Shown: piece after piece, positions 46,731 to 54,404 of the stretch
Layout: each line of letters begins with the position of its first letter
How positions within the stretch are numbered: position 1 is the first letter of the stretch
Origin: an uncultured Clostridia bacterium
Lineage (GTDB): Bacteria > Bacillota > Clostridia > Saccharofermentanales > Saccharofermentanaceae
Length of the DNA: 64,000 nt
Direction: 5' to 3'
Assembly: GCA_947304405.1 (NCBI GenBank)
Contig: CAMZBB010000002.1
Span: forward strand, 1 to 64,000
Position numbers and translations under genes: made by a program
The notes under the pieces: model-generated
The model's database searches: none
The model's input: the letters and a program-made list of their open reading frames with translations, nothing else
What the model was told of the DNA's origin: nothing

Positions 46731-47750
46731 ATGGAAACCAGGATTGACAGGCTAGGAAGCGTTAGGGAAGACAAGTTGCGTCAGCTCAAGCAGCTGATTG
46801 CTGAATCTGAATACATTGTTTTTCTTGGCGGTGCCGGTGTTTCTACTGAAAGCGGTATTCCTGATTTCAGGAGCGGTACCGGTATATACAATTCCGACAG
46901 CGGAATGAAATACAGGCCGATAGACATTATTGCCCACGACTTCTTCATGGAGCATCCTGCTGATTTCTTCGACTTTTACAAGCGTAAGCTCATATATCCC
47001 GATGCAAGGCCCAACAAGGCTCATAAGGCACTTGTAAGGCTTGAGAAGCAGGGTAAGCTCAAGGCCATAATCACTCAGAATATTGATAACCTTCATCAGG
47101 AAGCCGGAAGCAAGTGCGTCATCGAACTTCACGGTTCTGTTTTCAGGAATTACTGCATGGATTGTGGCAAGAAGTATGATCTTGAATATGTGGTTGCTCA
47201 GGAAGGCGTTCCGCACTGTGAGAAATGCGGCGGCATGGTCAGGCCTGACATCGTTCTTTATGAAGAGAACCTCAATCACAAAGACGTTGATGACGCCATC
47301 AAGGCAGTTAAGAAGTGCGACCTTCTGATCATCGCCGGAACATCGCTTACTGTTTATCCGGCCGCAACTTTTGCCCAGTTCCTTAAGCATGACAGGATAG
47401 TCATTATCAATAAGAGTTCGACTTATATGGATCTTAAGGCTTTGCTTACGATCCACGACAATGTCGGCGACGTGCTTGATGCGTGCGTTCCTAAGCGTGC
47501 AAGCAGGGCGAAGAGCGCTTCTTCTAAAACTACTAAAGCTAAATCCAAGACTGCGGCTTCAAAGACTTCTGCCAAGACTTCTGCAAAAACAAAGCCGGCT
47601 TCCAAAGCGAAAACACCGGCAAAAGAAACATCCGCCAAGACCACTGCGAAAAAAGCAGCAACTGCCAAAAAGGCACCGGCAAAGAAGGCTCCGGCAAAGA
47701 AGCCCACATCGTCTAAATCTGCAGGAAAAGTGAATGACGGCAAGGCTTAA
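46731..47750 (+). CDS. NAD-dependent protein deacylase (sirtuin) with Lys/Ala-rich C-terminal tail
   Basis: GGAGVSTESGIPDFRSGTG, ITQNIDNLHQEAG, ELHGS, CMDC..CEKC; tail KTAKKAATAKKAPAKKAPAKK. Confidence 0.9.
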   Translation: METRIDRLGSVREDKLRQLKQLIAESEYIVFLGGAGVSTESGIPDFRSGTGIYNSDSGMKYRPIDIIAHDFFMEHPADFFDFYKRKLIYPDARPNKAHKALVRLEKQGKLKAIITQNIDNLHQEAGSKCVIELHGSVFRNYCMDCGKKYDLEYVVAQEGVPHCEKCGGMVRPDIVLYEENLNHKDVDDAIKAVKKCDLLIIAGTSLTVYPAATFAQFLKHDRIVIINKSSTYMDLKALLTIHDNVGDVLDACVPKRASRAKSASSKTTKAKSKTAASKTSAKTSAKTKPASKAKTPAKETSAKTTAKKAATAKKAPAKKAPAKKPTSSKSAGKVNDGKA

Positions 47751-49596
47751 GTTTTTCGAAGACAAGAATAAAGATATTGAACAGTCAATGATGCTGCACG
47801 GGCGCAAAAGCGTTACGTTCAGCATTTTGCGTTTTGCATTATTCATTGCAGCTGTCGTATTCCTCGTCATGGCAATAACAGGGAAGAATACTGCATTCTA
47901 TTTTGTTTTTGCGGCTATTGTCATTGCTTTTACCGTTCTGTGCATCATTCACGGCAAGATCACTGCAAAGCTCAAATACTATGAAGCTTTATCAAATGTT
48001 AATTCCCGTTATATTGCAAGGATAAAGGGCGATTTTGATCTTCTTTTCGAACTTGTCTGCAAGGACCTTAAGAGGAGGGATGAGAAAGAAGAGGCCAGAA
48101 GATCTGCAGGCGGTAATGAGTTCTACATAGGCGATCACGATTACTGCATGGATCTTGACCTTTTCGGTAAGAAGTCGTTGTTCTCGCTTCTTAATGTCTC
48201 TGAAACATCATTTGGAAAAAGAGCTTTTGCAGGTGAACTCATGGGGCATGGAAATAAAGTAAGATCTGCTTCTGACATCATTGTCAGACAGGGCGCTGTT
48301 AAAGAATTATCCGATGATCCCGATTTCCTTTTGAAGTATCAGGCCACGGCTTTGTTGGGAAACATGAAAAAGGATCCGAAAGCACTTATTGATTTCGCCT
48401 CTGATAAAAAGCCCGTAAAGAAGCACTACGTTACGATATCGGTACTTCTTATTTGTCTCTGGCTTATTCCTTTAGCTTCGCTGATATTCTTTCCCGCATT
48501 TGTACGTGCTTCAGTGCTGGGCGTTCTTCTGATAAACCTTTTATCCTGGGTTTCAGGATTTAAGACAAACGCATATTATTTCACGGCTGCCGACGGTATG
48601 CCTTTGCAGGTCTCAACCATACATAAGCTTTATTCTTTGCTTGAGTCATCCGGACTTAAAGACGATTATCTGAGATCCCTTATTTCAGGAAAAGACGGCA
48701 AGGCGGTAACGTCTTCGTTATCATCGCTTTCCGTAATATTGTTCTTCTCCGGATTGAGGAGCCAGCCTTTGTTTGCTTTCCTTTTCAACAGCGTTTTGCC
48801 GCTCGATTATCTGATCTGCTATAACATGGGAAAATGGGCGGACAGTTTCGGGGACAGCCTTTATCATTCGGTTTACAATCTGGCTGAGATCGAGACTTTG
48901 ATGTGCGCATCGCAGATTTCATTTATCAGCGACGTTTGCTCTTTCCCTGAGATAGAGAAAAGTGATAATCCGGAAGACAATGCCTATTTTGCAGGAGAAG
49001 ATATCAAGCATCCGCTTCTTGCTCCGGATACCGCTGTCAGCAATTCCGTCACGATCAGATCTGACATAGCGCTTATAACAGGTTCTAACATGTCCGGAAA
49101 GACTACGCTCATCAGGACGGTCGGAGTTTGTTCTATCCTTGCTTATATGGGTTCGAAAGTTCCTTGCCGCTCTTTGTCTTTGGGAAGGATGAGGATAATG
49201 TCTTCCATGAGGATAACCGACAACTTAGGTGAGGACATGAGTACTTTCAAAGCTGAACTTGTCCGCATATCAGAGATCATTAAGAGTGCGAAAGAAGATG
49301 AGACGGCGCTTTTGTTCCTTATCGATGAGATCTTCCGCGGCACCAATTCAGACGACCGTACGGAAGGCGCACTGATCGTTCTTAAGAATCTGTCTTCTCC
49401 GCGCATCTGCGGAATGATGACAACTCATGATTACGCAATGATCGATAAGACAGTTGATTCATATAAGAATATCTGCTATTACCATTTCTCCGAAAAGTAC
49501 ACGGATACGGGTATTTCTTTTGACTATAAGCTCTCTGACGGCATAAGCCGTGAGTCAAATGCAAGATTCCTTATGAGGTTGGTTGGAATCGAATAA
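47734..49596 (+). CDS. Membrane-anchored MutS-family ATPase
   Basis: GSNMSGKTTLIRT Walker A, FLIDEIFRGTNSDDRTEGA, TTHDYAM; several hydrophobic helices; 17-nt overlap with sirtuin ORF. Confidence 0.8.
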   Translation: MTARLKFFEDKNKDIEQSMMLHGRKSVTFSILRFALFIAAVVFLVMAITGKNTAFYFVFAAIVIAFTVLCIIHGKITAKLKYYEALSNVNSRYIARIKGDFDLLFELVCKDLKRRDEKEEARRSAGGNEFYIGDHDYCMDLDLFGKKSLFSLLNVSETSFGKRAFAGELMGHGNKVRSASDIIVRQGAVKELSDDPDFLLKYQATALLGNMKKDPKALIDFASDKKPVKKHYVTISVLLICLWLIPLASLIFFPAFVRASVLGVLLINLLSWVSGFKTNAYYFTAADGMPLQVSTIHKLYSLLESSGLKDDYLRSLISGKDGKAVTSSLSSLSVILFFSGLRSQPLFAFLFNSVLPLDYLICYNMGKWADSFGDSLYHSVYNLAEIETLMCASQISFISDVCSFPEIEKSDNPEDNAYFAGEDIKHPLLAPDTAVSNSVTIRSDIALITGSNMSGKTTLIRTVGVCSILAYMGSKVPCRSLSLGRMRIMSSMRITDNLGEDMSTFKAELVRISEIIKSAKEDETALLFLIDEIFRGTNSDDRTEGALIVLKNLSSPRICGMMTTHDYAMIDKTVDSYKNICYYHFSEKYTDTGISFDYKLSDGISRESNARFLMRLVGIE

Positions 49597-49701: not shown

Positions 49702-51438
49702 ATGTTAGAAGAGTTAAGTGGTTATAAATCCATTTTCCTTGACTATTCAGTCCTTATAGAGTACGCAGGTACTCCGGTAATGGACGGACTTATGAGAGTC
49801 CTTGATTACGGCATGGATGTGTATGTTGATAAATCCTTCAAGGCACTTCATTATTGTACCCTGCATATAAAGGATCCCAAGGACCTCAAGGCTGCAGCTG
49901 CCATGAAGAAGATCTGTTCATATCTGCTTGCAGAGAACAGGCTGCATCTTATCAAGGAGATCGCCATCGATAAAGTCGCCGTCAATATCAATGAGATATC
50001 AGACGGTTGCTGCGTCCTGACCACGAGAAACTCGATCTTTACTAAGAGATTATATGAGAAGATGCCTTACTTGGGCTGTGATATTGCCATTATCGCAAAG
50101 GGTGTCCTCAATATCTTCGATTCGATCGATTCTTTGTGCTTCTCGTTCCCTAAGCAGGAGCCCAGCCGGCTTGCGTATAACAGTTCTTATATCGAGTCGT
50201 TCGGCAGCGCCAGCATCTCCGATGTTGTCGTTACGGATAAAGATGTCAAGTATGAGCTCGTTAAACGTCTCAGCGGCGGTGCAGAGGGCATGGTGTTTAC
50301 GACCAACCGTGAAGGCCATATCGTCAAGATATACCACAAGGGCATTATCACCCCGCTCCGTTGGGCAAAGCTCAAGAAGCTTACCGAGCTCGGAATCTCC
50401 GGTAATGGTTTCTGCATTCCCAAGGAACTTGTATATTTCCGCAATTCTCCTGTCGGTTATACGATGACTCTGGGCAAGGGAACTACGCTCGGAACTGTTT
50501 TCGACGGGCCTGATGCCATGCTCGAAGCTTTCCCGGAGTGGACGAGATGTGATGTCGTTAAGACTCTTCTTTCGCTTATTGAGAAGTATATATATCTTCA
50601 TATGCATGATGTCGTTGTAGGCGACATACAGTTGAAGAATGCGTTGATCGATACGTCTTCGGATGTTTATCTCATCGACATGGACAGCGTTCAGATCGGC
50701 AATCTTCCTTGTCCGGTCGGTACAGAAGAGTTTACTGATCAGAGATTATGGGGCAAGGATTTCTCCAAGTTCTTAAGGGAATTGAGGGATGAGGATTATT
50801 CGATCGCGATGCTTGTTTTCTCAGTCCTTTTCTGCGGGCTTCATCCTTATGCTACCCGTAATGGTGCTGAGACGCTCAAAGAAGAGATCGTAAACTATAA
50901 CTTCCCTTACAATTTCGAGAATGAATCGGAGTTCATTCCGGTTGGCGGTTACGATCACATCTGGGAATATACTTCTGACAGACTTCGTAAGATGCTCTAT
51001 GAGACGTTTAAGAACGGATGGTCATTTGACACGCTCGAATGGCTTGATGCTGTCGTTAAATACAAAGAAGATCTAGAGAACTTCGTCTACGATGATCCCG
51101 AAGCATATAAGCTTTTCCCGAAAGAGAACTATAAGCAGGCTTCAGTTGATGTGGAAGAGGCAAGAGAGAATCTGAAGCGTAATGCCGGCAAGTCCAAGCC
51201 TGCCGCACAGCCTGATCGTAATCAGGCACCTGCGCCGGTTCAGTCCGAACCTTCAGAGCCTGCAGTTTTCGGCAAGCCTATATTTGCCAGACCTGAAGAA
51301 CCTGTATCTAATGCAAATTCTCCTTTCGCGAAGAAGACTTTTGCCAATGTTCCTACGGGAAAATACATTCCCAAGGATCAGCTTCACGACCAGGATGATG
51401 AGGTTGCAAAAAAGAAGAAGTTCTTCGGATTATTCTGA
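49702..51438 (+). CDS. Protein kinase-like protein with N-terminal PIN-like domain
   Basis: N-term FLDYSVLIEYAG...DGCCVLTTRNSIFTKRL PIN-like; kinase LSGGAEGMVF, VKIYHKG, VVGDIQLKNALID, LIDMDSVQ, VGTEEFTDQR. Confidence 0.7.
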   Translation: MLEELSGYKSIFLDYSVLIEYAGTPVMDGLMRVLDYGMDVYVDKSFKALHYCTLHIKDPKDLKAAAAMKKICSYLLAENRLHLIKEIAIDKVAVNINEISDGCCVLTTRNSIFTKRLYEKMPYLGCDIAIIAKGVLNIFDSIDSLCFSFPKQEPSRLAYNSSYIESFGSASISDVVVTDKDVKYELVKRLSGGAEGMVFTTNREGHIVKIYHKGIITPLRWAKLKKLTELGISGNGFCIPKELVYFRNSPVGYTMTLGKGTTLGTVFDGPDAMLEAFPEWTRCDVVKTLLSLIEKYIYLHMHDVVVGDIQLKNALIDTSSDVYLIDMDSVQIGNLPCPVGTEEFTDQRLWGKDFSKFLRELRDEDYSIAMLVFSVLFCGLHPYATRNGAETLKEEIVNYNFPYNFENESEFIPVGGYDHIWEYTSDRLRKMLYETFKNGWSFDTLEWLDAVVKYKEDLENFVYDDPEAYKLFPKENYKQASVDVEEARENLKRNAGKSKPAAQPDRNQAPAPVQSEPSEPAVFGKPIFARPEEPVSNANSPFAKKTFANVPTGKYIPKDQLHDQDDEVAKKKKFFGLF

Positions 51439-51501: not shown

Positions 51502-52236
51502 ATGGGAGAGATGTTCAGTTCTGCGGATTTCGGTACAAGCACAAAAAGGAGACTTCCTATCTGTTTCGCGCTTGATACTTCCGGTTCGATGATGGGTAAT
51601 CCGATAAAGCAGCTCAATATGGGTTTGCAGAACTTCCTGGCATCGATAAAGAACAATGACGATACCCGTTCATCTACTGATATAGCTATCATTACATTCG
51701 GCTCAAAAGTCGAGATCGTAATGCCTTTCGGAAAGATCGCCAAGGACAAGGGCGTTCCTGAGATCACAGCATCAACTACTCTGACTCCTATCGGTGAAGG
51801 TATCCTTACTGCTTTGGAGCTCCTCAACGCACGTAAAGAGGGTTATAAGCAGATGGGTATCAAATACTATCAGCCCTGGCTGGTAGTCATTACGGACGGA
51901 GCTCCGCAGGGCCCTAATGCCATGCAGAATATGGAGCTTGCGATCAAAGCATGTAACGAGCTTGAAGCTAACGATAAGCTTGTCATTTTTAATATCGGTG
52001 TTGGTTCTGGTGTTGATTTCGATATCTTGAGGAGGCTTTCAGTTAAGCGTGAGGAGCCTATCTCGGTCAACTCTACTGATTTTGCTAAACTGTTCGAATT
52101 CCTCGGTTCGTCTTCTTCGTCCATCGTTTCTTCGGGAATGAGCGACGACGCACTTTATCACATCAATACGGCTCCTACCGGAGATGCAGTTGGTGTTGAT
52201 GATTTCATGAAGTTCATTAACGAGGATGACAACTGA
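51502..52236 (+). CDS. vWA-domain protein (TerY-like)
   Basis: CFALDTSGSMMGNPIKQLN MIDAS motif DxSxS, VVITDGAPQG. Confidence 0.85.
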   Translation: MGEMFSSADFGTSTKRRLPICFALDTSGSMMGNPIKQLNMGLQNFLASIKNNDDTRSSTDIAIITFGSKVEIVMPFGKIAKDKGVPEITASTTLTPIGEGILTALELLNARKEGYKQMGIKYYQPWLVVITDGAPQGPNAMQNMELAIKACNELEANDKLVIFNIGVGSGVDFDILRRLSVKREEPISVNSTDFAKLFEFLGSSSSSIVSSGMSDDALYHINTAPTGDAVGVDDFMKFINEDDN

Positions 52237-53321
52237 TGTATTCGGGAATCACCGTCGGCTGTGTTACCACCATCGGAAATAAGCATATCAACAGGCAGGT
52301 GCCTTGCGAGGATGCTTCTTTCGCGATGCAGAAGAACGGTGTTTCCGTTGTTTGTATTGCTGACGGCGCAGGCGGAAAGAAATATACACATGCCAGATTT
52401 GGTTCGGCTTGTGCAGTCAAGACGATTTCCGAGATACTTGCCGATCATTTTGACGCGCTGTACAGCGAGAACAGGGAAGCGGCCGTAAGATCTTATCTTA
52501 TGGCGAAGATCAGGATCGAATTTGCGGACATAATCGCAGAGAAAGAATTGGATACCCTTGATCAGCTGTCCTGCACTTTGCTGTTTGTTGCCGTAAAAGA
52601 CAGAAGAATGATCATCGGTCATTTGGGAGACGGCCTGGTAGTAAGGATATCTCCTTCGGGACTGTCGCCGTTCTCAATGCCCCAGAACGAGAAGGACGGT
52701 ACGACATTCTTCATTACTGCCGGTCACGCCGCTGATTACATGCGATTCATCAAGACTACAGTTGATGACTGTCATGCCGTTGCTCTGATGACTGACGGCG
52801 TTCAGGACAACGTCTATGATGAGGATTCCGGTCTGGTCAAACCCGTTGTGGCTAAGATGACCGAGACTTTCGCGGAAGGCCGTGAGAAGGGCGAAGAACA
52901 GATCAAAGAAATCCTTGAGAAATATATCGTCGGTTCGAGCAATGTCAGTGATGACTCCTCTTTTGGCGTTCTGCTCTTTGAGGGCACCCCGGCTCCTGAC
53001 GTTTCATCTCTTGAGAGCAGTGCCGGCAAGTTCGGTACTTCCGATGAGAACTTCAAGAGTGTTGCCATGTCGATCAAAGAGGATCTGATAAAGGCTTCTG
53101 AGATAATCAGTTCCGCTGCGTCAAAATCTGAAGAGGGCAAAGAAGAGGAAGCAAATAAAGAACCTGAGTCTGAGCCGGTTCCCGAGAAGACTGAACCCGA
53201 GCCTGCTATCGATCCTTCCGACGTTGCTGTTAAGTCGAGCAAATTTAATATTCCTGCCTTGATATTCGGCATTGCCTGTATAATAGAACTGATCATCATT
53301 GTTTTGCTGCTGGTTTTCTGA
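52236..53321 (+). CDS. PP2C-like protein phosphatase with C-terminal TM helix
   Basis: VVCIADGAGGKKYTHARFGS, GHLGDGLVV, LMTDGVQDNVYDED; TGATG coupling with vWA gene. Confidence 0.8.
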   Translation: MYSGITVGCVTTIGNKHINRQVPCEDASFAMQKNGVSVVCIADGAGGKKYTHARFGSACAVKTISEILADHFDALYSENREAAVRSYLMAKIRIEFADIIAEKELDTLDQLSCTLLFVAVKDRRMIIGHLGDGLVVRISPSGLSPFSMPQNEKDGTTFFITAGHAADYMRFIKTTVDDCHAVALMTDGVQDNVYDEDSGLVKPVVAKMTETFAEGREKGEEQIKEILEKYIVGSSNVSDDSSFGVLLFEGTPAPDVSSLESSAGKFGTSDENFKSVAMSIKEDLIKASEIISSAASKSEEGKEEEANKEPESEPVPEKTEPEPAIDPSDVAVKSSKFNIPALIFGIACIIELIIIVLLLVF

Positions 53322-53335
53322 CTTAGGAGGCTACC

Positions 53336-54193
53336 ATGAGTGACGAAAGAAAATACGAAGTACTTCCCGGCGTAGAATTACCTGACATGAAATCTATCAA
53401 TGCGGCCGCATCGGATTTCTCTGTGTCCGGAGTCTCGGATATTCAGATCAAGAGTCCCAAGCCTTCCTATACATCTGAAGGAAAGGCCGCAGACATGGCT
53501 ACGGCTGAGGAACTGGCTATGCTTCAGTCCTTGGGTGACCAGGTCGCTGCTGATGAAGCCCGTGCCGCAGCAGAGAGCCGCAGACGTATGGATAACATCC
53601 TTGCCAATGCCGTCCAGAAGCCCGAATCTATCGTTGATCTCTTGAATTACAACAGGGACAAAGTCTCCGAGGAACGTATCAAAGAGAAAGAAGAAGAGTT
53701 GAAAAAGGCTGAAGAAATCAAGAAGGCTGCTGAGGAAAAGGAACGCCAGAGAGAAGAGAGAAGACAGTTGCAGCAGCGTCTGTTGATGGAGGCTCGTGAA
53801 CGTGCCGCTGCAATGAGGGAGGCTGAAAAACGAGGGATCAAGGCTAATGAATCTCTTATCGAGAATAATGAAGGTGAATCAGAAGCTGAAAATGAATCCA
53901 AAAATGAAACCGAAACCAAGCCTAAGGCTGAACCCGAGGTTGCTCCCGTAAAAGAGACCGAATCAGAACCCGAAATGTCATTTGCTGATCCGGATAAGGT
54001 GTTTGCCTCTGCTCCTGCCAAGATCGAATCTGAAAAACCTGCACCGGAACCTGTCAAGGAACCAGAAAAGCAGCAGGAGATGCCTGCGCCTAAGAAACCT
54101 GAAAAGAAGATCGAGGAACCTGTTAAGCCTTCGATAGCATCTGCTGAAGAGACATTTGACGACTTCAGCGAATTCCTTGACGGCAACAAGTGA
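53336..54193 (+). CDS. Charged Glu/Lys-rich coiled-coil protein
   Basis: EERIKEKEEELKKAEEIKKAAEEKERQREERRQLQQRLL; acidic Pro-rich C-terminal part; 15 nt after phosphatase. Confidence 0.6.
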   Translation: MSDERKYEVLPGVELPDMKSINAAASDFSVSGVSDIQIKSPKPSYTSEGKAADMATAEELAMLQSLGDQVAADEARAAAESRRRMDNILANAVQKPESIVDLLNYNRDKVSEERIKEKEEELKKAEEIKKAAEEKERQREERRQLQQRLLMEARERAAAMREAEKRGIKANESLIENNEGESEAENESKNETETKPKAEPEVAPVKETESEPEMSFADPDKVFASAPAKIESEKPAPEPVKEPEKQQEMPAPKKPEKKIEEPVKPSIASAEETFDDFSEFLDGNK

Positions 54194-54366: not shown

Positions 54367-54370
54367 CAAG

Positions 54371-54404
54371 AAAGGATCTCTCACAAAGAGGTCCTTTTTT
54401 ATTT
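54371..54404 (+). terminator. Terminator after tRNA-Lys
   Basis: AAAGGATCTCT / AGAGGTCCTTTTTT. Confidence 0.85.

What the first reader, a model, noticed from the sequence alone, without database searches (positions are those of the whole stretch)
49702..50235. PIN-like nuclease domain fused to the N-terminus of a protein kinase
The first ~170 aa (SIFLDYSVLIEY...VYVDKSFKAL...NEISDGCCVLTTRNSIFTKRLYEKM...CDIAIIAKGVLNIF) have the beta-alpha pattern and Asp placement of PIN domains, immediately before a kinase domain with GDIQLKN and DMD in place of HRD/DFG. A PIN-kinase fusion would couple a phosphorylation switch to RNA cleavage.
Basis: inference. Interest (0 to 1): 0.72.

Follow-up and report, generated by a model that had tools for sequence, protein, structure and literature searches.

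The report
Kinase with a disarmed nuclease domain
A family of mostly rumen and gut bacteria carries, as a near-universal gene, a protein kinase whose front domain has the shape of an RNA-cutting (PIN) nuclease but has lost the cutting residues, while mobile relatives on plasmids keep that nuclease intact; this suggests that a mobile kinase-nuclease system was tamed into a signalling switch.

Summary
The ORF is real (49702-51438, 578 aa): residues 1-150 PIN-like, 185-475 kinase, then a variable tail ending KKKKFFGLF. AlphaFold/Foldseek put PIN domains at the top for the N-terminus, and a family-wide profile matches the PINs of related kinases (hhalign E 2.6e-4; score above all 100 shuffles). 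But the acidic cluster that would make it a nuclease is gone: of four PIN acids only D14 is conserved, and 0 of 60 relatives keep all four. The domain is still under purifying selection as strong as the kinase, so it is a working pseudo-PIN, not debris. The kinase keeps its catalytic Lys, Asp, Asn, Asp; GD and DMD motifs are normal for YegI/TerY-P-type kinases. The gene heads a four-gene core operon (kinase, vWA, PP2C, ORF4) in the Saccharofermentans family (108 of 115 genomes). Its nearest outside relatives are sporadic PIN-kinase/vWA/PP2C cassettes, some on plasmids, with intact PIN quartets. The phosphatase (and, in sister genera, the kinase) has a C-terminal membrane anchor. Verdict: PIN-kinase fusion yes; nuclease here most likely no; a domesticated TerY-P-like triad. 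The mobile intact version is where to test kinase-controlled RNA cleavage.

The parts
49702..51438 (+). Whole gene: pseudo-PIN + protein kinase + variable tail, 578 aa
   Evidence: ORF; in 108 of 115 genomes of the family
49702..50151 (+). PIN-like domain, residues 1-150, degenerate active site
   Evidence: AF2 pLDDT 88; Foldseek PIN hits E 3e-4; hhalign E 2.6e-4 to PINs of related kinases
49741..49743 (+). D14, the only conserved acid of the PIN quartet
   Evidence: 60 of 60 sequences
49840..49854 (+). K47 to Y51: position of the second PIN acid; K47 and H50 invariant in 60, position 51 is Tyr here and Glu in several sister genera
50029..50031 (+). N110, position of the fourth PIN Asp, not conserved
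   Evidence: acidic in 7% of 60
50254..51126 (+). Protein kinase domain, residues 185-475: K209, D308, N313, D326 invariant
51127..51435 (+). Variable tail ending in basic-aromatic KKKKFFGLF; possible membrane-binding end
   Evidence: fast evolving; replaced by a TM helix in sister genera
51502..52236 (+). vWA protein (TerY/YegL-like), MIDAS DTSGS...T...D intact; start at ATG 51502 more likely than TTG 51484
   Evidence: PF00092 E 3.5e-14; sequence read
52236..53321 (+). PP2C phosphatase with C-terminal TM helix; start overlaps the vWA stop by one base
   Evidence: PF13672 E 6.8e-37; TM
53336..54193 (+). ORF4, no known domain, low complexity with a conserved N-terminal segment (LPDMKSINAAASDFS); candidate substrate or adaptor
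   Evidence: synteny in 68 of 80 loci; sister genera
54368..54400 (+). terminator-like hairpin after ORF4
   Evidence: consensus scan only

Best explanation
The protein is the kinase of a vertically inherited, membrane-linked kinase-vWA-PP2C triad in the Saccharofermentans family. It shares an ancestor with mobile TerY-P-like cassettes in which the kinase carries an N-terminal PIN nuclease. In this family the PIN domain kept its fold but lost the metal-binding acidic cluster, so it most likely works as a docking or sensing domain (for a protein or an RNA) that regulates the kinase, not as an RNase. The kinase would phosphorylate itself and a partner (ORF4 is a candidate), the membrane-anchored PP2C would reverse this, and the vWA protein would act as a metal-dependent scaffold. 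Shown: domains, conservation, loss of the acidic cluster, synteny, selection, kinase phylogeny. Inferred: kinase activity, docking role, ORF4 as substrate, membrane association of the tail, domestication from a mobile ancestor.
For: PIN fold; profile match to PINs of related kinases, E 2.6e-4, above 100 shuffled decoys; same architecture and gene order kinase-vWA-PP2C in mobile relatives, against vWA-PP2C-kinase in PIN-less triads; kinase tree joins the family with PIN-kinases, 94/91; acidic quartet lost; PIN domain dN/dS like the kinase; kinase catalytic residues invariant; core and syntenic; TM on PP2C in 84 of 85 and on the kinase in sister genera.
Against: Genus-only profile comparison was not significant; fold TM-scores are modest (about 0.4 by query length); the family sits on a long branch (1.5) in the kinase tree; no recognisable alpha-C Glu in the kinase; no experiment; direction of domestication is inferred from distribution.
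Confidence: 0.68

Rival explanations
1. The N-terminal domain is still an RNase, alone with a rebuilt active site (D14, E20 and others) or as half of a composite site with another protein, and the kinase/phosphatase pair switches it.
For: D14 and S16 invariant, E20 in 92%; K47, H50 and R116 invariant; a precedent exists: SMG5 and SMG6 PIN domains form one composite active site (PMC12923823).
Against: Three of four acids not conserved; no PIN_4 partner found in this genome, which is 91% complete.
Confidence: 0.12
2. The operon is an anti-phage defence system in its present form.
For: TerY-P modules are reported as anti-phage (PMC7699616, PMC11090510); a mobile relative lies between a recombinase and type III restriction genes.
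Against: Core, single copy and syntenic through a whole family with housekeeping neighbours, unlike patchy defence genes; no PADLOC hit of note.
Confidence: 0.1
3. The N-terminus is a Rossmann-like domain unrelated to PIN, and the similarity is only of fold class.
For: Methyltransferases and NAD kinases appear lower in the Foldseek list; no sequence family hit; weak genus-only profile match.
Against: PIN domains lead the list; full-length collinear profile match above shuffles; E at the PIN Glu position in sister genera; PIN at the same place in the nearest kinases.
Confidence: 0.1

Closest known systems
Mobile PIN-kinase/vWA/PP2C cassettes (L155, L156, L157, L158; Lysinibacillus plasmid L180, Paenarthrobacter plasmid L181)
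   Same: N-terminal PIN, YegI-type kinase, same gene order kinase-vWA-PP2C; nearest kinases in the tree
   Different: PIN acidic quartet intact; most carry a zinc-ribbon C-terminus on the kinase; PP2C without a C-terminal membrane anchor; sporadic, often with an upstream HTH-PIN gene
TerY-P triad (vWA, PP2C, Ser/Thr kinase; described in PMC11090510 and PMC7699616 after Anantharaman 2012 and Gao 2020)
   Same: The three proteins and an intact vWA MIDAS
   Different: No zinc ribbon or OB fold behind the kinase, no TerD gene in the genome, PIN-type domain in front, different gene order, core rather than mobile
E. coli YegL-PphC-YegI
   Same: Chromosomal vWA-PP2C-kinase triad; GD and DxD kinase motifs; YegI is membrane bound and autophosphorylates (PMC13232886)
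   Different: No PIN domain; order vWA-PP2C-kinase; only distant kinase similarity
Inactive or composite PIN proteins (Utp23, SMG5) and kinase-RNase fusions (Ire1, RNase L)
   Same: A PIN without its own active site used for binding; kinase and RNase-type domain in one chain
   Different: Eukaryotic, other partners; Ire1 and RNase L use a KEN domain, not PIN (own knowledge)

Membership tests
PIN domain | PIN fold | tested here: met
   AF2 model, Foldseek PIN hits first; modest TM-scores
PIN domain | Sequence-profile relationship | tested here: met
   hhalign E 2.6e-4 with family-wide alignment; not significant with genus-only alignment; no Pfam hit
PIN nuclease | Three to four clustered acidic residues | tested here: not met
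   Only D14 conserved; 0 of 60 with all four, 1 of 60 with three
PIN nuclease | Metal-dependent RNase activity | not testable with these tools
   needs an assay
Protein kinase | Kinase fold with catalytic Lys, Asp, Asn and metal-binding Asp | tested here: met
   K209, D308, N313, D326 invariant in 52; Foldseek PknB and others
Protein kinase | alpha-C Glu | tested here: inconclusive
   aligned position is A, S or others; the mobile PIN-kinases have Glu there
TerY-P triad | vWA with MIDAS next to PP2C and kinase | tested here: met
TerY-P triad | Zinc ribbon or OB fold behind the kinase | tested here: not met
   no domain after residue 475; variable tail
TerY-P triad | Association with Ter genes | tested here: not met
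   no TerD in the genome
TerY-P triad | Anti-phage or stress phenotype | not testable with these tools
   needs an experiment

The most novel reading that the evidence does not exclude
A bacterial counterpart of Ire1/RNase L: PIN-kinase fusions in which a kinase-vWA-PP2C circuit switches an RNase on and off, spread as mobile cassettes and, in one bacterial family, turned into a core membrane signalling system whose disarmed PIN still binds RNA or completes a composite nuclease.
Probability: 0.2. Interest if true: 0.8.

Novelty: new variant of a known kind. Interest (0 to 1): 0.52.

Why it matters
It offers a natural series from intact, mobile PIN-kinases to a disarmed, core version. That makes two questions testable: does phosphorylation control a PIN nuclease in the mobile cassettes, and what does the domain do once the nuclease is lost? 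I found no description of the PIN-kinase triad in the held papers, though single genes are annotated 'PIN domain-containing protein' and the 2012 TerY-P paper could not be read.

Tried and rejected
Pfam, NCBIfam and PADLOC scans of the N-terminus: nothing convincing. PDB sequence search with the N-terminal profile: nothing. hhalign with the genus-only alignment: P 0.18; significant only after sister genera were added. Viral contigs for the mobile PIN-kinase: none. TerD or a stand-alone PIN_4 in the genome: none. Idea that GD/DMD mark a pseudokinase: rejected, since the same motifs occur in YegI-type kinases and the catalytic residues are invariant. Idea that the PIN domain is decaying: rejected by dN/dS. 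Measuring distances between the invariant residues was not possible because model coordinates were not readable.

Full report
Observation. Named relatives are Saccharofermentans-type bacteria, mostly rumen and gut MAGs. The first 150 residues hit nothing of note in Pfam, NCBIfam or PADLOC, but they are found in 56 of 59 genomes of the genus. A profile of the whole protein finds it in 108 of 115 genomes of the family and in none of 73 other genomes of the order; the seven misses are 64-88% complete.

Fold. With 60 relatives in the alignment AlphaFold2 gives a confident model (mean pLDDT 88); residues 1-480 together give pLDDT 91 and pTM 0.92, so the two domains are predicted in a defined arrangement. 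Foldseek against the PDB puts PIN domains first: chains of pre-ribosomes (best E 3.2e-4), Utp23, AF0591 (1o4w) and Utp24 (5yz4), with SMG6 lower down (the identity of some ribosomal chains as PIN proteins is from own knowledge). The best viral match is also a PIN protein. TM-scores are modest, about 0.41-0.44 by query length and up to 0.60 by target length.

Relatives that settle the identity. The closest kinases outside the family carry a recognisable PIN_4 domain at the same place. They lie in gene sets with the same order, PIN-kinase, vWA, PP2C, in 6 Bacillota genomes of 399 searched and on plasmids of Lysinibacillus and Paenarthrobacter; one copy lies between a recombinase and type III restriction genes. 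PIN-less triads read so far have the order vWA, PP2C, kinase. A family-wide alignment of our domain, including sister genera, aligns with the mobile PINs over 134 columns, hhalign E 2.6e-4. The score of 32.4 compares with a mean of 12.1 and a maximum of 21.2 in 100 column-shuffled decoys. With genus-only sequences the match was not significant. A kinase tree groups this family with the PIN-kinases (94/91) apart from PIN-less triad kinases such as YegI, on a long branch.

Active site. In the seven mobile PIN-kinases the four PIN acids are D, E, D, D, with one N at the last position. In our protein the aligned positions are D14, Y51, V94 and N110. D14 is kept in 60 of 60; acid is found at 51 in 10%, at 94 in 42% and at 110 in 7%; no sequence has all four and one has three. 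Several sister genera keep E51, so the acids seem to have been lost stepwise. K47, H50 and R116 are invariant in the 60, which suggests a new use of the surface; their clustering could not be measured. The domain is not decaying: dN/dS in close pairs is 0.015-0.085, near that of the kinase (0.016-0.058) and below that of the tail (0.13-0.21), although some dS values are near saturation.

Kinase and operon. K209, D308, N313 and D326 are invariant in 52 relatives and the fold matches PknB and many other kinases. GD and DMD replace HRD and DFG, as in YegI-type kinases (one search shows VVGDVNQN and LIDSDS in YegI); YegI is reported to autophosphorylate and to be dephosphorylated by PphC (PMC13232886). 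The vWA has an intact MIDAS and the PP2C its metal-binding acids (read). The vWA stop overlaps the PP2C start at 52236, and a terminator-like hairpin follows ORF4. vWA, PP2C and ORF4 accompany the kinase in 79, 77 and 68 of 80 loci, some of which are cut by contig ends, and in sister genera. The PP2C has a C-terminal TM helix in 84 of 85 cases. The kinase has one in several sister genera and the basic-aromatic end KKKKFFGLF in this genus, whereas the mobile PP2Cs lack the C-terminal anchor.

Interpretation. This is a TerY-P-like triad whose kinase has a PIN-type N-terminus, disarmed and kept as a core, probably membrane-linked signalling system. TerY-P is described as vWA, PP2C and a kinase with a C-terminal zinc ribbon or OB fold (PMC11090510) and as an anti-phage system (PMC7699616). 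This operon fails the zinc-ribbon and Ter-association features, so it works like a TerY-P triad but is filed as a variant.

Limits. No biochemistry, no readable coordinates, modest fold scores, a long branch in the tree, and a literature search limited to open-licence papers; the 2012 TerY-P paper itself could not be read.

Noticed in passing
L155 3529-4515; L154 3480-4340; L159 2373-3296; L188 4572-5492: Mobile PIN-kinase cassettes have an upstream gene with an XRE-type HTH and a second, degenerate PIN domain; the two PINs could form a composite site as SMG5-SMG6 do (PMC12923823).
   Followed up: partly
L155 541-9679: The PIN-kinase cassette lies between a serine recombinase and type III restriction-modification genes, a defence-island-like setting.
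   Followed up: no
window 51409-51435; L117-L119, L171, L173-L176: Kinase C-terminus is KKKKFFGLF in Saccharofermentans but a TM helix in several sister genera: two apparent solutions for membrane attachment.
   Followed up: partly
window 46731-47750: Sir2-type deacetylase with a long lysine/alanine/proline-rich tail like histone H1.
   Followed up: no
window 47734-49596: MutS domain V protein with predicted membrane segments is a conserved upstream neighbour of the triad (74 of 80 loci).
   Followed up: partly
window 53336-54193: ORF4 has no known domain but a conserved N-terminal segment across the family (like LPDMKSINAAASDFS); candidate substrate of the kinase.
   Followed up: partly
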